Shown here in pieces: positions 52,633 through 64,000 of a stretch of 64,000 nt of DNA. This stretch comes from Arthrobacter sp. AQ5-06. GTDB taxonomy: Bacteria; Actinomycetota; Actinomycetes; Actinomycetales; Micrococcaceae. The number at the start of each line of letters is the position of its first letter. Position 1 is the stretch's first letter. The stretch is taken from the NCBI RefSeq assembly GCF_003287955.1, contig NZ_QMKP01000002.1, positions 1 to 64,000 on the forward strand. The letters run 5' to 3'. The translations under genes were made by a program, and so were the position numbers. Below the pieces are notes generated by a model that saw only the letters and a list, made by a program, of their open reading frames with translations, made no database searches and was not told the DNA's origin.

Positions 52633-53025
52633 ATGCTTACTGGATTCAAGAATTTCATTATGAAGGGCAACGTTGTAGACCTTGCCGTCGCCGTCGTGAT
52701 GGGTGCCGCTTTCGGCGCCGTCGTGACCTCAATCGTCGAGGGCCTGCTCACACCGCTGATCGGCCGCCTGTTCAATGCCAAGGGGATTGAAGAAATGCAG
52801 TGGGAGGGATTCCTGTACGGATCCGTCATCTCCTCGATTATTTCCTTCGTACTCGTGGCTGCCGCCATTTACTTCGTGGTCATCATGCCGATGAACCACA
52901 TGATCGAACTGCGCAACCGCAAGCTGGGCATTGACCGGGACGTCAAGGAAGAGGCTGCGGAAGACCCGCAGATCGCCCTGCTCACCGAAATCCGGGATGC
53001 GCTGAAGGCCGACGCACGCCGGTAA
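52633..53025 (+). CDS. mscL: large-conductance mechanosensitive channel
   Basis: 130 aa, full length. A pentameric emergency valve opened by membrane tension in osmotic downshock. MLTGFKNFIMKGNVVDLAVAVVMGAAFGAVV is the N-terminal helix plus TM1 (given here in parts: KNFIMKGNVVDLAVAVVMG), TM2 is ISSIISFVLVAAAIYFVVI, and the C-terminal bundle ends the protein. No ribosome site is visible ahead of the ATG. Its terminator was split by the IS30 insertion. Confidence 0.96.
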   Translation: MLTGFKNFIMKGNVVDLAVAVVMGAAFGAVVTSIVEGLLTPLIGRLFNAKGIEEMQWEGFLYGSVISSIISFVLVAAAIYFVVIMPMNHMIELRNRKLGIDRDVKEEAAEDPQIALLTEIRDALKADARR

Positions 53026-53034
53026 AGCCAAAAT

Positions 53035-53045
53035 GGCCCGTCTCC
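53035..53045. terminator. left arm of split mscL/glmM terminator
   Basis: GGCCCGTCTCC (53035-53045), preceded by AAAAT, is the exact complement of GGAGACGGGCC at 54747-54757, which is followed by ATTCTTTT. Together they would form a bidirectional intrinsic terminator between mscL and glmM. They are now 1.7 kb apart because of the IS30 element. Confidence 0.75.
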
Positions 53046-53055
53046 TACTTGGATT

Positions 53056-53059
53056 CTAG
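53056..53059. repeat. target duplication CTAG (left)
   Basis: CTAG directly outside the left IS end is repeated outside the right end (54731-54734), a probable 4-bp target duplication. Confidence 0.6.
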
Positions 53060-53060
53060 G

Positions 53061-53075
53061 GGTCGTTGCAACACC
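53061..53075 (+). repeat. IS30 left inverted repeat
   Basis: GGTCGTTGCAACACC, the exact complement of 54715-54729. Confidence 0.85.
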
Positions 53076-53081
53076 TGTTGG

Positions 53082-54386
53082 TTAAGTGGTTAGTAGTAAA
53101 TCACGTAGACGCTCGGCTGGAGTACTCCAGCCGAGCGTTTTGCGTGGGCGTCCGTTGAGTTCCTGGGCCACGTGTTCGAGGTCTTCAGGGCCGTAGGCGG
53201 ACAGGTCGGTGCCCTTGGGGAAGTACTGGCGCAGCAGCCCGTTGGTGTTTTCGTTCGAGCCGCGTTGCCAGGGGCTGGCTGGATCGCAGAAGTAGACGGG
53301 CATGTCGGTGGCAAGAGTGAATGATCGGTGGGTGGCCATTTCCGCGCCTTGGTCCCAGGTCAGGGAGCCTCGCAGGTGCTCCGGAAGGGTTGCCATGGTC
53401 TTGACGAGTCCGTCGCGGACGGTTTCGGCGGTGTGGTCATTCGGCAGGTGGACGAGCATCACGTAGCGGGTGGTCCGTTCGACCAGGGTCGCGATCGCTG
53501 ACTGGTTATAGGCGCCGGTAATGAGGTCCCCTTCCCAATGGCCTGGCACGCCGCGGTCCTCGATCTCGGGCGGGCGCTCGGAAATCATGACCATCGGGTC
53601 CACGAATCGGGGGGTGCGCTGCTCGCCGGTGCGGTGGGGTTTGCGGCGGGTCCGACCGGTGCGCAGCGCTGCCTGTATCTCGCGTTTGAGGCCGCCTCTG
53701 GCCTGGACATAGAGGGCTTGATAAATCGTCTCTGGGCTCACACGCATCTCCGGGTTGTCGGGGAACTCTTCGACCAGCGTGTAGCTGATCTGCTCCGGAG
53801 ACCAGCGTAGGAGCAGCTTGTCATTCACGTAGCCGCGCAGGTCCGACTCGCCAGCGAGCTTGGCCGTCTTGGGCCGCGCCCGCCGGGCAGCGGCCTTCCG
53901 ATGCGCCCCGTGCGGCAGGTAGCCCATCCGGGGATCGGTATTTCGGCCCAGCTCTCGGCTGATAGTTGAAGGCGATCGCCCGAGGGCGTGTGCCATCGAC
54001 CTGACCGAGGAACCGGCGGTGTGCAGATCCCGGATGAGCTCCCGTTCCTGCACGGTCAGGAACCGCGGATCGATAGATTTCTCCAATGCTGATACCGGTA
54101 CGGGGACCAGGGTCGTTCCGGTCGTGCCGGCGGGAGGGGTCATGGTCGTCACACCACGTTTGTAGTCGACGATTCTGCCATCCGGGTAAATGCGTCGGCC
54201 ACCGGACTTACGGATTCCCTGGTCCCACTCTTCGGCGGTCCGCAGATGTATCCCGACCGCCTCTGCCGCTTTCCGCCGGCTCACGCCGGTCTTGCGCAGC
54301 CGGAAGTATTCGTCCCGCCCTGGGTGAGGACCCGTCCCCGTTTGCCATGGCTTTTCAGCCCGGCTTGACGAACCCAACCGGCGCAA
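53082..54386 (-). CDS. IS30 transposase, main frame
   Basis: 434 aa DDE transposase. Helix-turn-helix parts are RRKAAEAVGIHLRTAEEW and SVRSMAHALGRSPSTISREL; the catalytic Asp-Asp-Glu are in GHWEGDLITG, LTWDQGAEMATH and SNENTNGLLRQYFPKG. The catalytic core is complete, so the protein could be active. Its first ~20 residues are probably not native: the homologous reading continues from the second frame (54281-54688) through a -1 shift around 54320-54350. Confidence 0.85.
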   Translation of the reverse strand: MRRLGSSSRAEKPWQTGTGPHPGRDEYFRLRKTGVSRRKAAEAVGIHLRTAEEWDQGIRKSGGRRIYPDGRIVDYKRGVTTMTPPAGTTGTTLVPVPVSALEKSIDPRFLTVQERELIRDLHTAGSSVRSMAHALGRSPSTISRELGRNTDPRMGYLPHGAHRKAAARRARPKTAKLAGESDLRGYVNDKLLLRWSPEQISYTLVEEFPDNPEMRVSPETIYQALYVQARGGLKREIQAALRTGRTRRKPHRTGEQRTPRFVDPMVMISERPPEIEDRGVPGHWEGDLITGAYNQSAIATLVERTTRYVMLVHLPNDHTAETVRDGLVKTMATLPEHLRGSLTWDQGAEMATHRSFTLATDMPVYFCDPASPWQRGSNENTNGLLRQYFPKGTDLSAYGPEDLEHVAQELNGRPRKTLGWSTPAERLRDLLLTT

Positions 54387-54688
54387 GTTGCGGGATTCAG
54401 TCCCAGCTCCCGTGCAGCGTGCGTCGTGCTCTTGAGCCGGTCGAACACGATGAAGAACTCGGCTTTCTGGGCAGGCGTGTATTTCCTCTGCCCAGCTTCC
54501 CGATTCCGTGGGACCCGCTCAGGGAGCCGAGATTTATGGACCCATTGGTAGCACGTCATCTGATTGAAGCCGAGCTCCGCTGCGGCCTCTCTCACACTCC
54601 CACACCGGTCCAACACCGAAAAGAACTGGTCCTTCTGCTCTGGCGTGTATTTCCTTCGGCCGGCGGTTTCTTTCGTTAAAAACGACAC
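54281..54688 (-). CDS. IS30 N-terminal HTH frame (orfA)
   Basis: About 135 aa with two tandem helix-turn-helix repeats: RRKYTPEQKDQFFSVLDRCG...AAAELGFNQMTCYQWV and QRKYTPAQKAEFFIVFDRLK...AARELGLNPATCAGWV. GTG 54688 is the likely start. It overlaps the main transposase frame, which lies in -1, and the two join naturally near KSHGKRG / PHPGRDEYF. Either a -1 programmed frameshift makes the full transposase or a base has been lost; no classic slippery heptamer is evident. Confidence 0.6.
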   Translation of the reverse strand: MSFLTKETAGRRKYTPEQKDQFFSVLDRCGSVREAAAELGFNQMTCYQWVHKSRLPERVPRNREAGQRKYTPAQKAEFFIVFDRLKSTTHAARELGLNPATCAGWVRQAGLKSHGKRGRVLTQGGTNTSGCARPA

Positions 54689-54714
54689 GGTCGTTGCAAC
54701 TCCCAAAATTTCTG

Positions 54715-54729
54715 GGTGTTGCAACGACC
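54715..54729 (-). repeat. IS30 right inverted repeat
   Basis: GGTGTTGCAACGACC, the complement of 53061-53075. Confidence 0.85.
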
Positions 54730-54730
54730 G

Positions 54731-54734
54731 CTAG
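54731..54734. repeat. target duplication CTAG (right)
   Basis: Matches CTAG at 53056-53059 on the other side of the IS. Confidence 0.6.
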
Positions 54735-54746
54735 AACCCGTCCTAC

Positions 54747-54765
54747 GGAGACGGGCCATTCTTTT
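54747..54765 (+). terminator. right arm of split mscL/glmM terminator
   Basis: GGAGACGGGCC followed by ATTCTTTT. See the left arm at 53035-53045; a fresh hairpin cannot form from this half alone. Confidence 0.7.
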
Positions 54766-54779
54766 GGGTGCTTTTCGGG

Positions 54780-56141
54780 TCAGTCCGCCACCAGCTCGAG
54801 CGCAAGCTCGGTGCGGACAACCTGAGCCAGGCGCTCGGCGATCGACTGGGCCGTGTCTTCATCGCCTGCCTCCACCATGACCCGGACAACGGGTTCGGTG
54901 CCGGAGGGCCGCAGCAGGACACGTCCGGTGTCACCCAGTGCGGCTTCGGCCACGACCACAGCCTGTGCCAGCGCCTCGGAACTTCCCACGCGTGTGCGGT
55001 CAACGCCCTTGACGTTGATCAGTACCTGCGGGAGCTTCGTCATCACGGTGGCCAGCTGCTTGAGCGGGCGGCCTGTCAGGGCCACCTGGGCGGCCAGCTG
55101 CAGCCCGGTGAGGACGCCGTCGCCGGTGGTGGCATAGTCGGCAAAGATCACGTGCCCGGACTGCTCTCCACCAAGGTTGAAGCCGCCGTCGCGCATTTCC
55201 TCCAAGACGTAGCGGTCCCCCACCGCCGTTTCACGGATGCTGATGCCGGCCTTGCGGAGAGCGATCTTGAGGCCAAGATTGCTCATCACGGTGGCCACCA
55301 GGACGTCGTCGTTGAGCTTGCCCGAGGCTTTCAGAGCGACAGCCAGGATCGCCATGATCTGGTCGCCGTCCACCTCTGTGCCTTCGTGGTCCACGGCGAG
55401 GCAGCGGTCGGCGTCGCCGTCATGGGCGATGCCCAGGTCTGCGCCGTGCTTGACCACGGCGGCCTTTAAGGGGCCGAGGTGGGTGGAGCCCACGCCGTCG
55501 TTGATGTTGTGGCCGTCCGGATCGGCGCCGATCACTATCACGTCGGCGCCGGCGTCCTTGAAGACCTGGGGTGAGCAGCCGCTGGCGGCACCGTGGGCGC
55601 AGTCCAGCACTACCTTCAGGCCGTCGAGGCGGTGCGGGAGTGTCTGCAGGAGGTGGACGATGTAGCGGTCCTCGGCGTCGGAGAACCGCTGGATCCGGCC
55701 CACGTCGCTGCCGAGCGGCCGCACGGGCTCCTTGCTCATCTGTTCTTCGATGGCGTTCTCGACGTCGTCGGGGAGCTTCTGGCCGCCGCGGGCGAAGAAC
55801 TTGATGCCGTTGTCCGGCGCGGGATTGTGGGAGGCCGAGATCATGACGCCGAAGTCGGCGTCGAGGTCTGCCACGAGGTAGGCCGCGGCGGGCGTCGGGA
55901 GGACACCGGCGTCGTAGACGTCAATACCAGAGCTGGACAGCCCTGCCTCGACGGCGGCGGCGATGAATTCCCCGCTGGCGCGGGGGTCACGCGCCACAAC
56001 GGCGCGGGGCCGTGAGCCGTTGGTATTGCGGTCATGACCCAGCACGACGGCGGCCGCCTGGGCCAGGTTCATCGCCAACTCGGCAGTCAACAGGCCGTTA
56101 GCCAGGCCCCGGACACCATCTGTTCCAAATAATCTAGACAT
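54780..56141 (-). CDS. glmM: phosphoglucosamine mutase
   Basis: 453 aa. It converts glucosamine 6-phosphate to the 1-phosphate, following GlmS. The phosphoserine loop is [17 protein letters not shown], the metal loop [11 protein letters not shown], the sugar loop [10 protein letters not shown] and the phosphate-binding end [14 protein letters not shown]. In actinobacteria glmM normally follows rplM-rpsI; here 6.9 kb intervenes, so it needs its own promoter. Confidence 0.97.
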
Positions 56142-56198: not shown

Positions 56199-56423
56199 TC
56201 AGCTCGGCCCCGTAGGTGCTGCGGGCGCGATTGTATTGAGCTGCCATTTCACGGCTTTTCCGTTTGCCCTCTTGGATGTACGGTGCCATCCTTTGCAGCC
56301 TCCGCATGGGTAGACGCTGGCAGACAGCTTGCCGCCCAATGAGGAGCTTTTGAGAACGATAATTCGGAGCGCCTGGTTTGCGTGCCAGACGGTCGGATAG
56401 GTGATCTTGTTGCAGATTGCCAT
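56199..56423 (-). CDS. small protein with CxxC, unknown
   Basis: 74 aa, not recognised. YPCGGCKGWHRTSK gives a CxxC plus His, perhaps half of a zinc ribbon, and the rest is basic. ATG 56423 (MAICNKITYPTVWHANQ) is chosen for GAAGGA 9 bases ahead; the frame extends to 56480. It lies in the interval between glmM and the rpsI-end duplication and may have arrived with the island. Confidence 0.55.
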   Translation of the reverse strand: MAICNKITYPTVWHANQALRIIVLKSSSLGGKLSASVYPCGGCKGWHRTSKRANGKAVKWQLNTIAPAAPTGPS

Positions 56424-56559
56424 CGGACGAAATCCTTCGTGAAGGACTACGCGCGGCTCATATCCACAGTTGGGCGGCACCCATCAGTGGCGTCCAGGGG
56501 TTCCACTCGAAGTGGCTGTGAGTCTTAACGCTAGCATCCCAGTCATCACGTGCAATGGC
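56424..56559. other. intergenic, nothing identified
   Basis: 136 bases between the small CxxC gene and the rpsI-end duplication. It should hold the promoter of the small gene; no clear box, repeat or reading frame is seen. Confidence 0.4.
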
Positions 56560-56651
56560 AGGAGCCCCCACCAATGGTGAGGCGGGCTCCTGAGTAGCGG
56601 ATTTAGCCCTCGGAGTTCTGCGGAGCGTTACTGGTCTGCTTGAGACCGGTC
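56560..56651 (-). repeat. diverged copy of rpsI 3' end and terminator
   Basis: It begins with a hairpin AGGAGCCC...GGGCTCCT around CACCA-a-TGGTG, then AGCGGATTTAGC, then a region matching the last ~14 codons of rpsI. Against 63099-63194 the best 55-base block has about 46 identities without gaps. On the minus strand it reads GLKQTSNAPQNSEG and stop where rpsI reads [14 protein letters not shown] and stop. Same orientation as the real rpsI, so the two form a direct repeat about 6.5 kb apart. Confidence 0.8.
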
Positions 56652-56807
56652 GCCGTCAAAGATGCCGGCAGTGACGTCGAGATGTCGCCACCGGAGCCCT
56701 GCGGCCCCGCTTAAACTCGGCCGCCCCGGCTGGACCTGACCGAATTCTCGGTGATACGAGTATGCTCGCTGCAGCTGTTGGTAACCGCGGCGAGGGGGAC
56801 GTAGGGC
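56652..56807. other. intergenic leader of acyltransferase gene
   Basis: 156 bases between the duplicated rpsI end and the acyltransferase gene. Similarity to rpsI stops here. It should carry the island promoter (a possible -10 is TATGCT near 56761) but I cannot place boxes with confidence. Confidence 0.35.
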
Positions 56808-57920
56808 GTGCCGACAATTCGCATTCAATTGAACAGTCTGACGGGGCTTCGCTTTTTCGCAGCGATGGCGGTGGTGCTCTACCACTTGCGGATCTACGTC
56901 CCCCAGATCAGCGACGGCCTTGCCGTGTTCGGGTACGGGTTCACGGGTGTAAGTTTCTTCTTCGTTCTATCCGGATTTGTCCTCACATGGTCTCACCGTT
57001 CCGATGTCCACTCGGGGCGGTTCTACTGGAATCGGTTCGCACGGATCTGGCCCCTCCATGTGTTGACCATGATCGTATCGATCTGGACTCCGTTGTTGAG
57101 TGCGACGACTTCAGCTACTTTCTCGGCGGTGCCGTTCGTCGTCACGCTAACCCAGGCGTGGATCCCGGGCAGCCCTTTCCTGACGTCGTTTAACGGGGTT
57201 TCCTGGTCGTTATCGTGCGAAGCGTTCTTCTATTTACTGTTTCCGCTCCTTTTTCGGAAGCTTGACGGTCATCGGTCAGTCGCCCGGATTGCTGGAGGCG
57301 TTGTTGCAGCTCTTGCCCTCGCGGGTCTCAGCTTGTCCGCCTTCACATCGATTTCGGTAGCGGATTATCTCTTGGGCACCATGCCGCTTTACCGCCTCGC
57401 AGAGTTCATCCTCGGCATGTGCCTGGCCACGGTGATGAAACGTGGCTGGCGCCCCCGGTTTCGACTTGTGCACGCGGTTGGACTTTCAGCGATTTCCATG
57501 GTCGTTTTGACCACGGTGTCGGTGATCTTCATGGGGCCATCCGGTGGTCTGCCGGTTATCTGCGCCAACTTAGTCATGATCCCCAGTTTCCTTGCGGTCA
57601 TCTCTGCGTCAGCAGGTCGAGATCTATCGGGCACTAGCGGCGGACCCGCATCGAGGGCGCTGGCGCGTCTCGGTCAGTGGTCGTTCGCGCTGTACCTCGT
57701 TCACGAGCTGGTACTACGGCTGGTCAGGCCCCTCATCGGCGAGCGGCCTGTGGAGGATGCCTGGACGGCCGCCGCCATCCTGATAGTTGCATCCATTGCA
57801 CTTTCTGGACTTCTGCACGAGTTCGTCGAGAAACCTGCGGAGAAATGGCTGCGATCTCGTCGCGGTTCTAAAATGAAGCCCCCGGCAACACCCGCTGAAG
57901 TACACCACCCGGGTGAGTAG
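56808..57920 (+). CDS. acyltransferase-3 family membrane protein
   Basis: 370 aa with about ten hydrophobic helices. It begins IQLNSLTGLRFFAAMAVVLYH with the conserved His and continues GYGFTGVSFFFVLSGFVLTW, the hallmark of this family. No SGNH domain follows. It would O-acylate a glycan at the membrane. First of four plus-strand genes of visibly lower G+C than the surroundings; the neighbours (GT2-GtrA and two GT39) suggest the glycan is the one they build. The 116-base gap to the next gene leaves room for a separate promoter. Confidence 0.9.
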   Translation: MPTIRIQLNSLTGLRFFAAMAVVLYHLRIYVPQISDGLAVFGYGFTGVSFFFVLSGFVLTWSHRSDVHSGRFYWNRFARIWPLHVLTMIVSIWTPLLSATTSATFSAVPFVVTLTQAWIPGSPFLTSFNGVSWSLSCEAFFYLLFPLLFRKLDGHRSVARIAGGVVAALALAGLSLSAFTSISVADYLLGTMPLYRLAEFILGMCLATVMKRGWRPRFRLVHAVGLSAISMVVLTTVSVIFMGPSGGLPVICANLVMIPSFLAVISASAGRDLSGTSGGPASRALARLGQWSFALYLVHELVLRLVRPLIGERPVEDAWTAAAILIVASIALSGLLHEFVEKPAEKWLRSRRGSKMKPPATPAEVHHPGE

Positions 57921-58036
57921 GTAGCCGAACCCTTTGTTGGTCTGGCGTCCCTCGCACTACTTGGTTTTTGCGTCTGAGTACTCGACTTTTGAAGGAACCC
58001 TCGCCACCCGCATCTCTGCACCCCTACGATCCATTC

Positions 58037-59275
58037 ATGACACCTAGCTATGGGGGCTTGGCGCTCGAAATTGTAGTACCGGTTTTCAATGAGGAAGCCG
58101 TACTCGAAAACAGCATCACGAAGCTCTCCGAATATCTGACGCTCGAAATGCCTTCGACGTGGAAAATCACGATTGCGGACAATGCAAGCACTGACAGAAC
58201 GCCAGTTATTGCCGCTCGGCTCAGCGAGCAGTTGCCCAACGTTCAGTACCGCCGTCTGGAAACAAAAGGACGGGGGTACGCTCTCCGGGATGCCTGGGGA
58301 GCTTCGGAGGCGAAAGTCCTGGCCTACCTAGATGTAGATCTGTCGACTGACCTCGCGGCTCTGCCGCCGCTGGTGGCACCGCTTTTGTCAGGGCATTCTG
58401 ATATTTCCATCGGCACACGGTTGGGTCAAAGTTCGCGCGTCAGTCGCGGTCCCAAGCGGGAATTCATTTCCCGTTCCTACAATTTCCTACTTCGCCGGAC
58501 GATGCAGGTGCGTTTTTCCGATGCGCAGTGCGGTTTCAAGGCAATTCGAGCTGATGTGGCAAAGCGATTGCTACCGCACGTTGAGGACAACGACTGGTTC
58601 TTTGACACCGAACTACTCATTATTGCCGAACGTTCCGGACTGCGCATCCACGAAATTCCCGTGGACTGGATCGACGATCCCGACAGCCGGGTGAATATTA
58701 AAAAGACCGCTTACGACGATCTCCGCGGGATGGTCCGCGTAGCCGGTTCCCTGGTCAGGGGAAAAATTCCGGTCCAGGCCATCTATGCCGAACTTGGCCG
58801 GCGGCCTATCGTTCCGCCCGGGCGGCCCAGTTTCTTCGGGCAAGTGATCCGGTTTGGCCTGGTGGGTGCTGTCTCGACGCTCGCCTTCGCCCTGCTCTAC
58901 TTGGTGCTCCAAGGTCCATTCACCTCTCAAGAAGCGAACTTCCTGGCCCTGCTACTGACAACTGTCGGCAACACTGCGGCCAACCGCCGGTTCACCTTCG
59001 GCATCAGCGGCCCCGGACGGCTATTTACGCAGCAATTGCAAGGCCTTATCGTCTTCCTGCTGGCTTGGGGAATTACGTCCTCTTCGCTTCTGATCCTTCA
59101 TTCGATCAACCTCAATGCCGCACCTAGTACGGAGTTACTCACGTTGACGGCCGCCAACGTTTTCGCAACGCTGATGAGGTTTGTGCTCCTCCGGATCTGG
59201 GTGTTCCGCGTCCGCCGTAGTGACGAACGATCTTCAATGCTCGCGCTTCGGCCTGCCGGACAGTCTGTCCGTTGA
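58037..59275 (+). CDS. polyprenyl-P-sugar synthase fused to GtrA
   Basis: 412 aa. The N-terminal GT2 domain (LEIVVPVFNEEAVLENSI, YLDVDLSTDLAALPPLV, DAQCGFKAIRADVAKRL) resembles dolichyl/polyprenyl-phosphate mannose or glucose synthases. The C-terminal ~130 residues are a GtrA-like four-helix domain (IRFGLVGAVSTLAFALLYLV, NTAANRRFTFG) proposed to flip the lipid-linked sugar. It would make and flip polyprenyl-P-sugar for the GT39 enzymes beside it. ATG 58037 is preferred; a TTG at 57968 is the alternative, neither with a strong ribosome site. Its stop overlaps the next start by 4 bases. Confidence 0.88.
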   Translation: MTPSYGGLALEIVVPVFNEEAVLENSITKLSEYLTLEMPSTWKITIADNASTDRTPVIAARLSEQLPNVQYRRLETKGRGYALRDAWGASEAKVLAYLDVDLSTDLAALPPLVAPLLSGHSDISIGTRLGQSSRVSRGPKREFISRSYNFLLRRTMQVRFSDAQCGFKAIRADVAKRLLPHVEDNDWFFDTELLIIAERSGLRIHEIPVDWIDDPDSRVNIKKTAYDDLRGMVRVAGSLVRGKIPVQAIYAELGRRPIVPPGRPSFFGQVIRFGLVGAVSTLAFALLYLVLQGPFTSQEANFLALLLTTVGNTAANRRFTFGISGPGRLFTQQLQGLIVFLLAWGITSSSLLILHSINLNAAPSTELLTLTAANVFATLMRFVLLRIWVFRVRRSDERSSMLALRPAGQSVR

Positions 59276-61152
59276 GCATCAAGGAGGCGAGCCCAGTCCC
59301 GGCTCGCACGAAAGGTACTGTCCGACATCGCCTGCCGTGGGAGCAAATCGGTCTGGCGGTCCTCCTCGCTGGCACCGCGGCAGCGTTCCTCTGGGGCCTG
59401 GACCGCAACGGCTGGGCGAACCCCTTTTACTCCGCAGCGGCTCAGGCCGGATCACAGAACTGGAAAGCCTTCTTCTATGGCTCCCTTGACGCCGGCAACG
59501 TCATCACCGTCGACAAACCGCCGCTGAGCATCTGGATCATCTCACTGTCCGTCCGGCTGTTCGGCCTCAACTCCTGGGCCATTTTGGCCCCCCAAGCCCT
59601 CATGGGCGTGGCCACGACCTTGCTGATCTATAAAGTCATCCGACGCAGCCAGCCTGCCCCAACAGCCTTACTGGGCGGTCTCATCTACGCAACGACACCC
59701 GTGGTTCTCCTGATGTCGCGCTTCAACAATCCCGAGCCACTCATGGGACTCCTGACGGTAGCCGCCGTCTACTACGGACTCCGGGCTATGGAAGACAACC
59801 GCTCGGCCTGGTATTTGCTTATGGGAACAGCCTTGGGCCTTGGGTTTATGGCAAAGCAAATTCAGGCCTTCCTAGTGATTCCCGCACTCCTCCTCGCGTT
59901 GCTTCTACTTGGCGTCGGAACCGTCAGGTCGCGCCTGCTCCGGCTGCTAGGAACGCTAGCCGCGATGGTTATCAGCGGCGGCTGGTGGATGACCATAGTT
60001 GACTTGACCCCCGCCGGCGAGCGGCCTTATGTTGGCGGATCTGCGTCAAATAGCATGCTCGAACTAACGTTGGACTACAACGGGCTGGCTCGTTTCCTAC
60101 GTTTCAGTGCGGACGCACAGCTAGGAAAAGCGGAAGCCCCTGTCCCGTCCGATATGAACTACGACGGCGGCCCTGGCCGTCTCTTTAACGCCAATTTTGC
60201 TCCCGAAGGAGCGTGGCTACTTTTCACCGCGTTGATTTGCGCCCTCGCTTTGTTAGTGCTGTGGCGCCAGTCAGGGAGCGGCAGACAGGGTTCGCGTCTG
60301 ATGACCGTTGGCGTTGTGTGGCTGGTCTCCGTCTACGTTGTCCTGAGCTACATGGGCACTATGACACACACGTACTATATTTTTTCCATCGCGGCTCCCG
60401 TGGCCATCGTGGTTCCTTTGGGAATCCAGCTTCTGTGGAATCTGAGGCATCGAGGAGTTCCCCGCCTTATCGGCGCTGTCCTTGTGTCCGGGACCGGCTA
60501 TATCGCAGTCCGAATTTTCCAGTACAGCAACGATTGGGGCCTGTGGCCGCTCGTCGTGGCATGCGCCGCGTGTCTGGCCACGGCGGGGTGGCTCTTGGCA
60601 GCAAGGCCGCTCGCGCGCGTCGCTGTCATGGCTCTAGTGGTTTTATCCATGGTGATTTCCCCAGTGGCAACTGACCTTATTACGTTAACTCGGCCCCAGA
60701 CGGGCACCAATCCCCTGTCGGGCCCGGTGGCCAACAACCCTGAGGCACTGGCGGCACATCTTGAGGCAGCCCGCCTCGGGAATCCTCCCCTTGCACGCCA
60801 TCTCGGATACGGGGTTGCACCATCAGATGCAGTGACAACACTTCTTAAAAAAACCAGCAATGCTGAATGGGCTGCGGCCACCTATACCGCCCAGAATGCG
60901 GCCCAATATCAACTGGCCTCTCAACGGCCGGTCATCGCGCTGGGAGGGTGGCTAGGTGAGGATCCCGCCCCTAACATCGAACAGTTCAAGAGCCTGGTCG
61001 AGAAGCAGAAGATCGGCTACTTCATATGGCAACAACCAATCCTAGACGGAGTACCGCTTGGAACCGATGCTGCTGCCATCACGGAGTGGGTCCACGCTAA
61101 CTACACGGGAGAAGAAGTTGACGGTGTCACAGTCTACGACCTTGGGAAATAG
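59272..61152 (+). CDS. GT39/GT-C glycosyltransferase 1
   Basis: 626 aa, about 11-12 hydrophobic helices then an extracellular ~150-residue domain. NPFYSAAAQAG, ITVDKPPLSIWI, SRFNNPEPLMGLL and MAKQIQAFLVIP are the conserved loops of the ArnT/PMT-like (B. subtilis YkcB-type) group, which use polyprenyl-P-sugars. The start is TTG overlapping the upstream stop (TTGA), so the gene is translationally coupled to the polyprenyl-P-sugar synthase, its probable donor supplier. The acceptor (wall glycan, lipid or protein) is unknown. Confidence 0.88.
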   Translation: MSIKEASPVPARTKGTVRHRLPWEQIGLAVLLAGTAAAFLWGLDRNGWANPFYSAAAQAGSQNWKAFFYGSLDAGNVITVDKPPLSIWIISLSVRLFGLNSWAILAPQALMGVATTLLIYKVIRRSQPAPTALLGGLIYATTPVVLLMSRFNNPEPLMGLLTVAAVYYGLRAMEDNRSAWYLLMGTALGLGFMAKQIQAFLVIPALLLALLLLGVGTVRSRLLRLLGTLAAMVISGGWWMTIVDLTPAGERPYVGGSASNSMLELTLDYNGLARFLRFSADAQLGKAEAPVPSDMNYDGGPGRLFNANFAPEGAWLLFTALICALALLVLWRQSGSGRQGSRLMTVGVVWLVSVYVVLSYMGTMTHTYYIFSIAAPVAIVVPLGIQLLWNLRHRGVPRLIGAVLVSGTGYIAVRIFQYSNDWGLWPLVVACAACLATAGWLLAARPLARVAVMALVVLSMVISPVATDLITLTRPQTGTNPLSGPVANNPEALAAHLEAARLGNPPLARHLGYGVAPSDAVTTLLKKTSNAEWAAATYTAQNAAQYQLASQRPVIALGGWLGEDPAPNIEQFKSLVEKQKIGYFIWQQPILDGVPLGTDAAAITEWVHANYTGEEVDGVTVYDLGK

Positions 61153-63022
61153 AGATACTGCCGCCTCCAGTGACTCTCATTTATCGCTCCGCAGACCTTG
61201 GTGGGAACCTCTAACACTCGTTCTAATCATGATTGGGGCCGCCATCCTGTATGTATGGGGATTAGCCGAGAATGGATGGGCTAACCCCTACTACTCTGCG
61301 GCAGTGCAAGCTGGTCTTCATGACCCGGCAGCATTCTTCTTTGGATCTGCGGACTGGGGCAACTCAATAACAGTGGATAAGCCGCCTCTCAGCCTTTGGA
61401 TCATGGGCTTGTCCGTCAGACTCTTCGGGCTGAACACATGGGCCCTTTTGCTCCCTCAGGCGGCTATGACCGCGGGTAGTACGCTGCTGATTTACCGTCT
61501 GGCCCGACGGCACCTGCCGCCCTATGCTGGCCTCCTTTCGGCCGCCGTCTTCGCTAGCACGCCCATCACAGTACTTCTCGCACGCTACAACAACCCCGAT
61601 CCACTGATGGTGCTCCTAATGCTATTGGCCATCTATGCAGGTATCCGAGCAACAGAGTCAGGCCGGGTCCGATATCTCTACCTAGCGGCCGGATTTCTGG
61701 CTCTGGGCTTCCTCGCGAAACAGCTTCAGGCGTTTCTTGTCTTACCAGCTATCGCCATTGTGTTCTGCCTGTATGTCCAGAAGAGCTGGTGGCAACGCTG
61801 GGTCTCGCTGGTTCTGACCGGTCTGCTTTTAGCAGCTGGCGCTCTTGCATGGCCGCTAGCCGTTGACCTTACGCCGGCTAACTCCCGCCCATACGTGGGG
61901 GGTTCAACAACTAATAGCATGCTCGAGTTGACTATTGGTTACAACGGAATCGATAGAATTGTCCAGGCGGGGGACGGGCCTTCGGCAGCACTGACCCCTC
62001 AAGAATTCCAGAGCATCACTACGGACGCCGGCTTTTTCCGTTTATTCAACTCCAATTATGGTCAGGAGTCAGGCTGGCTGCTGCTGCCAGCACTAATTGT
62101 TTGCGCCATTATTGCGGCTCAGGCCGTCCGTCGGCGAGATGACGCCAGTCGACCCGTATTTGCAGTAGCCGCAGCAACCTGGATGATCACGACTTACGCC
62201 GTGCTCAGCTTTATGGGCAATAGCATTCATTCGTACTACACGGCCTCAATAGCGGCCCCCTTGGCACTTTGCATCGGCTTGGGAAGCCAGATGGTAGTTT
62301 CGTCGGCTAAGTCGATTCCACAGCGTATCGGGATCGCGGCGGCCATTGTGCTCAGTTCGCTATTCTCACACGCAATGTGGCAGGTCAGTGCGTCCTATCC
62401 TGAGGCTGTGGGAACGGCCTTGCTGCTGATTGGGCTGATCGGCGCGGCAGCGCTCTCGGTGCCGGCCCCCTTCAAGTGGGTTAGGCCGGTCGCCGCCAGT
62501 CTCGGTATCGGCGCTTTGCTAGTTGGGCCCTTGGTATGCTCCATGCTGACTTTGACTTCTCCTCAGCAGGGCTCCAATCCGCTCTCAGGCGGTCTCTCCC
62601 GGAGCCCTAATACCATCAGCCGATTCTTGGACGGCGTCAAGCGCAATGACCCTGCATGGGCCACTGGCTTGGCAATAGGTGTCACACCCAGCCCCGCCCT
62701 ATCGGTATACATTAGAAACGCTCCGCCGGGCTGCACATGGGCCGCTGCCACTTATCCAGGACAGACCGCTGCCCGCTTCCAACTGGAGGTGGGGAGGCCG
62801 GTTATGCCGCTCGGCGGCTTTGCCGCCCTGGACGCTACGCCAACCCTTGAACAATTCAAGGAAATAGCCCAGAAGGGGCAACTTTGCTACTTGGTTGTAC
62901 AGCCCGAGCAACTAAAAGTGCCAGGCCTCAACAGCGAACTCTTGGCCATCCAGAAATGGGTTTCAGATAACTTCACTCCGCAGCATATTGACGGTGTCAC
63001 CGTATACGACTTGCGTAGATAG
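61127..63022 (+). CDS. GT39/GT-C glycosyltransferase 2
   Basis: 631 aa, a paralogue of the preceding gene: NPYYSAAVQAG, ITVDKPPLSLWI, ARYNNPDPLMVLL, FLAKQLQAFLVLP. Its external C-terminal domain has a Cys pair (PPGCTWAA and GQLCYLV) that the first copy lacks, a possible disulfide. The two proteins have clearly drifted apart, so this is an old tandem duplication, perhaps for different acceptors or sugars. GTG 61127 lies inside the end of gene 1 (26-base overlap); a TTG at 61121 is the alternative. Confidence 0.87.
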   Translation, partial: SQSTTLGNRDTAASSDSHLSLRRPWWEPLTLVLIMIGAAILYVWGLAENGWANPYYSAAVQAGLHDPAAFFFGSADWGNSITVDKPPLSLWIMGLSVRLFGLNTWALLLPQAAMTAGSTLLIYRLARRHLPPYAGLLSAAVFASTPITVLLARYNNPDPLMVLLMLLAIYAGIRATESGRVRYLYLAAGFLALGFLAKQLQAFLVLPAIAIVFCLYVQKSWWQRWVSLVLTGLLLAAGALAWPLAVDLTPANSRPYVGGSTTNSMLELTIGYNGIDRIVQAGDGPSAALTPQEFQSITTDAGFFRLFNSNYGQESGWLLLPALIVCAIIAAQAVRRRDDASRPVFAVAAATWMITTYAVLSFMGNSIHSYYTASIAAPLALCIGLGSQMVVSSAKSIPQRIGIAAAIVLSSLFSHAMWQVSASYPEAVGTALLLIGLIGAAALSVPAPFKWVRPVAASLGIGALLVGPLVCSMLTLTSPQQGSNPLSGGLSRSPNTISRFLDGVKRNDPAWATGLAIGVTPSPALSVYIRNAPPGCTWAAATYPGQTAARFQLEVGRPVMPLGGFAALDATPTLEQFKEIAQKGQLCYLVVQPEQLKVPGLNSELLAIQKWVSDNFTPQHIDGVTVYDLRR

Positions 63023-63096
63023 GCCGCACTGTCACTGCCTGGGTACGCGGAGCGCCCGTACCATCACAAAGCGGCACCCCATGTCGGCGCACGCCA

Positions 63097-63135
63097 AAAG
63101 GAGCCCGTCCCGCCAATGGCGGGACGGGCTCCTTT
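63097..63135. terminator. bidirectional terminator, rpsI/GT39
   Basis: AAAGGAGCCCGTCCCGCC (63097-63114) and its exact complement (63118-63135) form an 18-bp perfect stem around AAT. On the minus strand TTTT follows, ending rplM-rpsI. On the plus strand it ends the glycosyltransferase genes. Confidence 0.92.
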
Positions 63136-63194
63136 GTAAGCGGATTTAGCGCTTGGAGTACTGCTGAGCCTTACGGGCCTTCTTGAGACCGGCC
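63099..63194 (-). repeat. rpsI 3' end, intact copy of the direct repeat
   Basis: The rpsI terminator and last codons, matched by the diverged copy at 56560-56651. This copy is the functional one because it is continuous with rpsI. Confidence 0.8.
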
Positions 63195-63652
63195 TTCTTA
63201 CGCTCGATGACGCGTGCGTCACGGCGCAGGTAACCGGCCTTCTTCAGCGTGGCGCGGTTGTTCTCGGTGTCGATCTCGTTCAGGGAACGGGCGATGCCGA
63301 GGCGCAGGGCACCGGCCTGGCCGGAGATGCCGCCACCGTGGATGCGGGCAATGACGTCGTAAGCTCCATCAAGATCGAGGATCTTGAAGGGCTCGTTGAC
63401 GTCCTGCTGGTGCAGCTTGTTCGGGAAGTAGTTGTCCAGCGCGCGGCCGTTGATGGTCCACTTGCCGGTGCCGGGGACGATGCGCACGCGGGCAACAGCT
63501 TCCTTGCGGCGGCCAACTGCGGCGCCGGCAACGGTCAGTGCCGGGCGTTCCTTCTTGGGCGCTTCTGCTTCCGCAGGACCGCTCTCCGAGGTGTAGCTGG
63601 TCGGGTTTTCCTCAGCCACAATGGCCTCGGTGGTCTCTTCGTTCTGAGCCAC
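63146..63652 (-). CDS. rpsI: 30S ribosomal protein S9
   Basis: 168 aa. The core from [20 protein letters not shown] to the end is standard uS9, and the C-terminal [15 protein letters not shown] reaches the decoding site. A ~40-residue acidic N-terminal extension ([16 protein letters not shown]...) is typical of actinobacteria. It follows rplM by 38 bases. Confidence 0.97.
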
Positions 63653-63690: not shown

Positions 63691-64000
63691 CTACTGGGCG
63701 ACCTGGGAAATTTCGAACGTCTTGGGCTGCTGGGCGGCGTGGGGGTGCTCTGCACCGCGGTACACCTTCAGCTTGCCCAGCTGCTGTGCAGCGAGGGAGT
63801 TCTTGGGGAGCATGCCTTTGATGGCCTTCTCCACGGCGCGGACCGGGTTGGATTCCAGGAGTTCCGCGTAGTTGACGGAGGTCAGGCCGCCCGGGTAGCC
63901 GGAGTGGCGGTATGCGCGCTTCTGCTCCAGCTTGGCGCCGGTCAGGGCTACCTTCTCGGCGTTGATGATGATGACGAAATCGCCCATGTCCATGTGGGAC
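63691..64000 (-). CDS. rplM: 50S ribosomal protein L13, 5' end off window
   Basis: The C-terminal ~102 residues of uL13 (147 aa in relatives); the gene continues beyond base 64000. [20 protein letters not shown] and [19 protein letters not shown] are diagnostic. First gene of rplM-rpsI. Confidence 0.95.

What the first reader, a model, noticed from the sequence alone, without database searches (positions are those of the whole stretch)
56560..63194. Glycosylation island flanked by a direct repeat of the rpsI 3' end
Two same-orientation copies of the rpsI terminator plus last codons bound about 6.45 kb: 56560-56651 (diverged) and 63099-63194 (functional). The best 55 bases match at about 46 positions without gaps. 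The insert separates rpsI from glmM, which are adjacent in actinobacteria such as Mycobacterium, and holds an acyltransferase, a GT2-GtrA fusion and two GT39 genes of visibly lower G+C (one sampled line near 61201 is about 52%). This looks like a recombination event that brought in a foreign rpsI end with its cargo, making this locus a swap site for surface glycan genes. No integrase is seen inside.
Basis: partly seen in the sequence, partly recalled or inferred. Interest (0 to 1): 0.75.

Follow-up and report, generated by a model that had tools for sequence, protein, structure and literature searches.

The report
Pilus-matched glycosylation genes beside rpsI
Arthrobacter-type soil bacteria keep a changeable set of genes for predicted sugar-attaching enzymes at one fixed chromosome spot that is empty in many relatives; the decayed extra end of the neighbouring ribosomal gene here is likely the scar of one acquisition, and because the enzyme types track the type of the cell's Tad pilus, they would likely decorate that pilus.

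Summary
The repeat is real: 56560-56651 is a decayed copy of the rpsI 3' end and terminator (E 4.9e-17). Sister strain AL07 shows it is a longer rpsI relic with an internal deletion. It faces ORF93-glmM, as intact rpsI does in four island-free genomes, so it is likely the displaced resident rpsI end; the functional copy is not visibly foreign.

The rpsI-glmM interval is an old glycosylation locus, not a one-off import: 30 of 81 loci hold over 1.5 kb, 50 under 350 nt, with at least 14 gains or losses. GT2-GtrA largely follows descent; GT39 genes are swapped. The relic occurs in 2 of 30 filled loci (one event); G047 has an independent rpsI relic beside another glycosyltransferase gene.

Unexpectedly, GT39 similarity tracks Tad pilus alleles beyond rplM (partial rho 0.55-0.74 over 63-64 loci; 0.67-0.78 in other genomes), while rplM-rpsI, glmM and prepilin peptidase give 0.06-0.09. 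In three genomes a DUF6541/GT2/GT39 module lies inside the pilus region. I infer that the enzymes glycosylate the Tad pilus; acceptor and sugar are untested.

The parts
63146..63652 (-). rpsI, functional (ribosomal protein S9, 168 aa)
   Evidence: Pfam PF00380
63097..63135 (-). rpsI terminator, functional copy
   Evidence: 19-nt perfect inverted repeat; -43.8 kcal/mol
61058..63022 (+). GT39b, PMT_2/YkcB_C membrane glycosyltransferase (start may be later)
   Evidence: Pfam PF13231, PF24878
59272..61152 (+). GT39a, PMT_2/YkcB_C membrane glycosyltransferase
   Evidence: Pfam PF13231, PF24878, PF02366
57968..59275 (+). GT2-GtrA fusion; an ATG at 58037 is a likelier start, as several homologues are about 410 aa
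   Evidence: Pfam PF00535, PF04138; homologue lengths
56808..57920 (+). membrane acyltransferase (Acyl_transf_3)
   Evidence: Pfam PF01757
56596..56649 (-). rpsI relic, last codons (decayed)
56560..56595 (-). relic of the rpsI terminator
56661..56679 (-). further rpsI-derived piece (rpsI nt about 294-312), joined across an internal deletion
   Evidence: weak here (25 of 500 shuffles), clear in AL07 (0 of 500)
56199..56480 (-). ORF93, small protein without a Pfam match; marks the likely older rpsI-ORF93-glmM arrangement
54780..56141 (-). glmM, conserved neighbour on the other side
   Evidence: Pfam
63691..64000 (-). rplM 3' part (continues beyond the window); named from synteny and recall, no family search run; the Tad pilus locus lies beyond it, about 0.8-9 kb from rpsI
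   Evidence: ORF; Tad genes on L113

Best explanation
The rpsI-glmM interval is a position-fixed locus whose genes for predicted membrane glycosyltransferases differ between related species, and the repeat of the rpsI end is likely the displaced end of the resident rpsI, left when DNA carrying rpsI plus this cassette was presumably joined beside it. Shown: the relic, empty and filled sites, repeated gain or loss, largely vertical GT2-GtrA against swapped GT39 genes, covariation of GT39 with Tad pilus alleles, and GT modules inside the pilus region of three genomes. Inferred mechanism of entry: one crossover by homology in rplM-rpsI, the other join illegitimate within or before the resident rpsI, so that the incoming rpsI is used and the old one decays. 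Inferred function: the GT2 domain puts a sugar on undecaprenyl phosphate, GtrA flips it, the GT39 enzymes pass it to surface acceptors, most likely Tad pilus subunits, and the acyltransferase may modify the product; a strain that changes its pilus would need matching GT39 enzymes.
For: Relic; shared with AL07 in a separate assembly, and the only second rpsI-end copies among 198 genus genomes searched are in these two. Relic = resident end: it faces ORF93-glmM, and 4 of 206 genomes have rpsI-ORF93-glmM without the island; its 3' end scores nearer to the empty-site sisters L001 and L003 than to the functional end, and the window's relic has a terminator stem pair found in only those 2 of 81 functional ends, 13 of which gave no readable stem. 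Second independent case: G047 (L224) has rpsI, a gene 81% identical in DNA to the L017 GT87 gene, a relic of rplM end-rpsI-terminator, then GT39-GT2. Locus: 50 of 81 intervals under 350 nt, 30 over 1500; at least 14 changes on the rpsI+glmM tree of 78; GT2 ortholog in 73 of 206 genus genomes at E 1e-170 or better; in a sister genus 9 of 9 stretches, chosen for a strong GT2 match, have rpsI-GT39-GT2, with glmM seen beyond in 8. Swapped GT39: rho with core 0.20-0.31 against 0.82 for GT2. Pilus link: first set partial rho 0.38-0.68 for five Tad genes; 0.67-0.78 for six Tad genes in 41 other loci; prepilin peptidase, which lies nearer, 0.19 (first set), 0.12 (other loci) and 0.06 (combined). Modules in the Tad region of AL07, G009 and G134, their GT39 75-80% identical to the rpsI-glmM GT39 of L005 and L228-L231.
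Against: Only two independent rpsI relics are known, so most exchanges left no such trace. The functional rpsI is not demonstrably foreign. The four ORF93 relatives between rpsI and glmM are only 39-43% identical, two with a stop codon, while the closest ones outside AL07 (G142 71%, G085 68%) lie elsewhere. The relics are too decayed to fix the crossover, and in G047 relic and functional terminators are nearly the same, which also fits a local duplication. The permutation counts are not calibrated: in the combined set the rplM-rpsI control reached 0 of 200 with a tiny effect (0.087), prepilin peptidase 5 of 200, so effect sizes carry the argument. In the smaller core clade (n 9) the link is weaker: CpaE 0.33 (49 of 500), TadA 0.53 (10 of 500). 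Exceptions exist: L075/L024 and L017/L228 share a GT39 type with different Tad, L080/L029 and L041/L037 the reverse. Pilin tails do not differ cleanly between filled and empty sister pairs. A CpaE match of 85% or more of its length occurs in 73 of 81 loci, so at least 43 without an island have a Tad locus and do not need these enzymes for it.
Confidence: 0.6

Rival explanations
1. A site-specific integrative element once inserted at the rpsI 3' end, as the streptococcal IMESag-rpsI does; the repeats are its attachment sites and the integrase has been lost.
For: The direct repeat covers the rpsI 3' end and terminator with cargo between; an element 3' of rpsI flanked by two attachment sites is described in Streptococcus agalactiae (PMC5090054, passages).
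Against: No integrase among the island genes or in 19 further proteins from relatives' intervals, apart from one transposase-type fragment in L037 (not every ORF was scanned). The AL07 relic reaches back to rpsI nt 291, and the G047 relic includes the rplM end and rpsI start, beyond a usual attachment core (recalled). 28 of 30 filled sites lack the repeat.
Confidence: 0.1
2. Ancestral island with many losses; rpsI was locally duplicated by chance, and the relic says nothing about acquisition.
For: GT2-GtrA follows the core tree (rho 0.82); the same arrangement in a sister genus; functional rpsI is clade-like.
Against: The relic is followed by ORF93-glmM, as in four island-free genomes. GT2 of L005 is not with OWN and L004 (AU p 0.031), and L063+L064+L076 is rejected (p 0.0018). 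GT39 genes hardly follow the core.
Confidence: 0.25
3. Tad and GT39 covary only because long blocks spanning both were exchanged together, with no functional link.
For: The loci lie within 10 kb on either side of rplM-rpsI; L016, L064 and L076 resemble OWN on both sides.
Against: rplM-rpsI and prepilin peptidase lie between and covary little with GT39 (rplM-rpsI 0.07, -0.03 and 0.09; prepilin peptidase 0.19, 0.12 and 0.06), and the effect does not fall with distance from rpsI.
Confidence: 0.3

Closest known systems
Replacement flexible genomic islands coding for surface glycosylation (PMC4033161, passages seen)
   Same: Surface-glycan genes at a fixed site between conserved genes, different content per lineage, no hallmarks of site-specific insertion; homologous recombination in the flanks is proposed there
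   Different: Many strains here are simply empty; an rpsI relic marks one junction; the content is matched to a second locus (Tad pilus) on the other side of rplM-rpsI
Multi-component transmembrane glycosylation systems, e.g. GtlA/GtcA/GtlB and YkcC/YkcB (PMC8035078, passages seen)
   Same: GT-A enzyme, GtrA-type flippase and GT-C enzyme (PMT_2/YkcB type by Pfam here)
   Different: GT2 and GtrA are fused; one to three GT39 genes per locus; known acceptors are teichoic acids and wall polysaccharides, and the functions of YkcBC are unknown there
Pilin glycosyltransferases TfpO/TfpW of Pseudomonas aeruginosa (PMC11841053, passages seen)
   Same: The glycosyltransferase type goes with the pilin type; glycosylation evades pilus phages
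   Different: Type IV pili of a Gram-negative; no sequence relation tested; here a Tad pilus, with the enzymes across rplM-rpsI
IMESag-rpsI and other elements at the rpsI 3' end (PMC5090054, passages seen)
   Same: Cargo 3' of rpsI between repeats
   Different: Site-specific recombinase and mobilisation genes there; none seen here

Membership tests
Integrative element at the rpsI 3' end | site-specific recombinase | tested here: not met
   none among the island genes; 19 proteins of relatives' intervals, one transposase-type fragment only
Integrative element at the rpsI 3' end | short attachment-site repeats at both ends | tested here: inconclusive
   repeat present, but the relic holds internal rpsI sequence and 28 of 30 filled loci lack it
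Replacement flexible genomic island | same site, different surface-gene content between conserved flanks | tested here: met
Replacement flexible genomic island | exchange by homologous recombination (identical islands in divergent backbones, substitution peaks at borders) | tested here: inconclusive
   tree discordance and GT39 swaps, but no identical island seen; border peaks not tested
Multi-component transmembrane glycosylation system | GT-A enzyme, GtrA flippase and GT-C enzyme encoded | tested here: met
   Pfam
Multi-component transmembrane glycosylation system | sugar transfer via undecaprenyl phosphate to a surface acceptor | not testable with these tools
   needs biochemistry
Pilus-dedicated glycosyltransferase (TfpW-like by role) | enzyme type matched to pilus type | tested here: met
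   covariation, with exceptions; modules in the pilus region of 3 genomes
Pilus-dedicated glycosyltransferase (TfpW-like by role) | glycosylated pilin | not testable with these tools
   pilin tail comparison gave no clear answer

The most novel reading that the evidence does not exclude
rplM-rpsI sits between two coupled exchange loci, a Tad pilus and its dedicated Und-P-sugar glycosyltransferases: pilus and glycosyltransferase types are exchanged but stay matched across ribosomal genes that are not exchanged, a first case of Tad pili with allele-matched glycosylation as far as my searches reach, and rpsI is the recurrent entry anchor that leaves rpsI relics.
Probability: 0.42. Interest if true: 0.8.

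Novelty: new variant of a known kind. Interest (0 to 1): 0.66.

Why it matters
GT39 enzymes of the YkcB type with GT2-GtrA partners are common in this genus (GT2-GtrA in 73 of 206 genomes), and for YkcBC no function is known (PMC8035078, passages). Matching them to Tad pilus alleles gives a concrete acceptor to test in harmless soil bacteria, and would make Tad pilus glycosylation and its role against pilus phages open to direct test. The rpsI relics give a visible trace of how surface genes may enter beside essential ribosomal genes without breaking them.

Tried and rejected
Foreign functional rpsI end: not supported. Low G+C as an import mark: rejected. Repeat as general swap mechanism: rejected; of 30 filled loci only OWN and L004 score clearly above shuffles. 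L066 (31 against a shuffle maximum of 29) and L002 (29 against 28) were taken as noise; L066 also has a 25-nt match (E 2.3e-6) right after its rpsI terminator, which I did not count as a relic. Of 11 further loci, L173 scored 39 against 34 and proved a gapped match of 44 rpsI bases, counted as none. Of 41 new loci (threshold 36), L224 is real; L229 (45) matches sequence after the rpsI stop codon, not rpsI coding sequence, and was not counted. A blastn scan of 67 loci gave L224, L004, OWN and the L066 match only. In one search, G016 and G134 also had a second short match (E 4.8e-4 and 7.5e-4) outside the rpsI part of the query. Composite transposon by the IS30-like element: one further full copy and partial copies lie on other contigs, none at the other island end. 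Pilin Ser/Thr content as a proxy for glycosylation: of four filled/empty sister pairs read by eye, two fit (L029/L031, L080/L079), one is neutral (L028/L021), one opposes (L032/L036). Island presence against Tad: nearest-neighbour agreement is no better by Tad (0.69) than by core (0.75). Tad-GT2 link without five loci is weak (partial 0.22, 41 of 1000).

Rows dropped: 3 of 81 loci without enough glmM (core set 78); of the 73 genomes, 59 were fetched plus a Tad-side stretch of G139; 18 of these 60 stretches shared their GT2 with the first set, then L239 (that Tad-side stretch) was left out of the final test. still held L239. The new loci are other genomes of the same genus, not an independent lineage.

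No structure prediction, homologous-protein search or DNA pattern scan was run.
Full report
Observation. The two rpsI ends are real. A 54-nt block (85%) and the terminator block (80%) repeat at 6542-6543 nt spacing, with E 4.9e-17 in the own genome and no third match there. In AL07 a further rpsI piece (nt 291-324, 29 of 33 identical, 0 of 500 shuffles) lies directly upstream, so the relic is a 5'-truncated rpsI with an internal deletion of about 135 nt, not just a terminator. The window's own copy of that piece is not significant alone (25 of 500).

What the relic is. Between relic and glmM lies ORF93. ORF93 relatives occur in 16 of 206 genus genomes, the window's included. In four of them (L119, L122, L124, L128; 39-43% identical) the order is rpsI-ORF93-glmM and no island gene was found in between. 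The relic thus stands where intact rpsI stands in island-free genomes. Against this, the closest relatives outside AL07 (G142 71%, G085 68%) lie elsewhere. The relic's 3' end scores nearest, after AL07's relic, to L001 and L003, the empty-site sisters (59.5 each against 55.5 for the functional end; for AL07's relic L001 56.0, L003 and L002 52.5, the window's functional end 46.0). The window's relic has a terminator stem pair seen in only L001 and L003 of 81 functional ends, 13 of them unreadable. The functional rpsI is clade-like throughout. I therefore read the relic as the displaced resident end and do not claim a foreign donor for the functional one.

The locus. Of 81 loci (80 plus the window), 50 have under 350 nt between rpsI and glmM, 30 more than 1500 nt, and one (L074) about 480 nt with an ORF93 relative. 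On a tree of rpsI+glmM DNA (78 loci) filled and empty states need 15 changes, 14 forced by starred branches. In the six-member clade of the window, two are empty (L001, L003), two share island and relic (window, L004), one has another island (L005) and one has GT39 pieces only (L002). GT2-GtrA orthologs occur in 73 of 206 genus genomes at E 1e-170 or better. In a sister genus, 9 of 9 stretches, chosen for a strong GT2 match, have rpsI-GT39-GT2 in the same order, with glmM visible in 8. The place is old. Other cargo includes GT87, DUF6541 and other acyltransferases.

What is swapped. Over 26 loci, GT2-GtrA distance follows the core (rho 0.82; median identity 76%); GT39 next to GT2 or to rpsI hardly does (0.31 and 0.20; medians 37% and 35%). 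Within the larger clade (17 loci) the values are 0.51 for GT2 and 0.13 and -0.02 for GT39. Some GT2 transfer is seen too: the core grouping of L005 with the window and L004 is rejected at p 0.031, and L063+L064+L076 at p 0.0018.

A second relic. In G047 (L224) the order is rpsI, a gene 81% identical in DNA to the L017 GT87 gene, a relic made of the rplM end and rpsI start (119 nt, 83%, E 8e-33), an rpsI middle piece (27 nt, weak, E 0.002) and terminator, then GT39, GT2, glmM. Here too a glycosyltransferase gene lies between the functional rpsI and a dead one. Two independent cases suggest, but do not prove, entry anchored in rplM-rpsI. The relic and functional terminators of G047 are nearly the same, so a local duplication is also possible.

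The pilus link. Beyond rplM lies a Tad locus (T2SSE, two T2SSF, RcpC/CpaB, TadE/G-like, an AAA_31 ATPase taken as CpaE, prepilin peptidase). Tad alleles of the window are closest to L004, L016, L064 and L076, while its core is closest to L001-L005. In the first set (25-28 loci per test) the similarity of the closest GT39 pair of two loci tracks Tad similarity after removal of core distance: partial rho 0.38 (CpaE), 0.42 (TadA), 0.49 (TadB), 0.68 (TadC), 0.58 (CpaB), each 0 of 500 permutations within two core clades; prepilin peptidase 0.19 (45 of 500); glmM 0.13 (357 of 500); rplM-rpsI 0.07 (78 of 500). It is strong in the larger clade (0.62, n 17) and weaker in the smaller (0.33 and 0.53, n 9). 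Without the window, L004, L016, L064 and L076 it stays at 0.37 for the four Tad genes pooled (n 20). In 41 loci not in the first set (39-40 usable) it is 0.67-0.78 for six Tad genes and 0.12 for prepilin peptidase; combined (67 loci, 60-64 usable per test) 0.55-0.74 against 0.06 (prepilin peptidase), 0.09 (rplM-rpsI) and 0.08 (glmM) (with L239 still in). The permutation counts are not calibrated for related sequences: the combined rplM-rpsI control also reached 0 of 200, so the contrast in effect size is the evidence. Exceptions run both ways. Four genomes had a second strong GT2 hit on the same contig. In three of them, AL07, G009 and G134, a DUF6541/GT2-GtrA/GT39 module lies within the Tad region, between TadC and TadE/TadG genes; in the fourth, G171, both GT2 genes lie between rpsI and glmM. 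The module's GT39 is 75-80% identical to the GT39 of L005 and L228-L231 in the rpsI-glmM site, against at most 66% to any other among the 67 loci searched.

Mechanism. By established knowledge of such systems (PMC8035078, passages), GT2 charges undecaprenyl phosphate with a sugar, GtrA flips it, and the GT-C enzyme transfers it outside. That the acceptor is the Tad pilus is my inference from covariation and context. TfpO and TfpW of P. aeruginosa go with their pilin groups and protect from pilus phages (PMC11841053, passages), which is an analogy, not a membership. How the cassette entered (homologous crossover in rplM-rpsI plus an illegitimate join) is inferred.

Literature. Searches for rpsI+glmM+glycosyltransferase+genomic island, Arthrobacter+rpsI+glmM and Tad pili+glycosylation+Arthrobacter found no paper in the held open-licence library; a looser search gave three, by their listing none on this subject. 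Two Arthrobacter-group genome papers (PMC9723602, PMC12025171; passages) do not mention the locus in the passages and term counts seen. PMC4701971 was seen in search listings only.

Noticed in passing
window 53000-54760: IS30-like transposase plus an upstream HTH_Tnp_1 ORF just downstream of glmM; one further full copy (95%) and several partial copies, some at contig ends, in the same genome.
   Followed up: partly
L113 / L114 (own genome beyond the window): The own genome has a second Tad-like gene set further upstream of rpsI (CpaE paralogue at about -12 kb, closest to L078).
   Followed up: no
L240:3910-9102, L241:4157-9342, L242:5847-11029: DUF6541, GT2-GtrA and GT39 module inside the Tad pilus region of three genomes; DUF6541 is of unknown function.
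   Followed up: partly
L002, L027: GT39 or GT2 genes look broken in these two strains, possible islands in decay.
   Followed up: no
L243:2174-10362: G171 has two GT2-GtrA genes in one rpsI-glmM interval.
   Followed up: no
L179:5987-6205: In G142 an ORF93 relative (71%) lies just past the 3' end of glmM instead of before its start.
   Followed up: no
L066, right after the rpsI terminator: A 25-nt match (96%, E 2.3e-6) to sequence near the rpsI 3' end directly follows the terminator, perhaps a doubled terminator.
   Followed up: no
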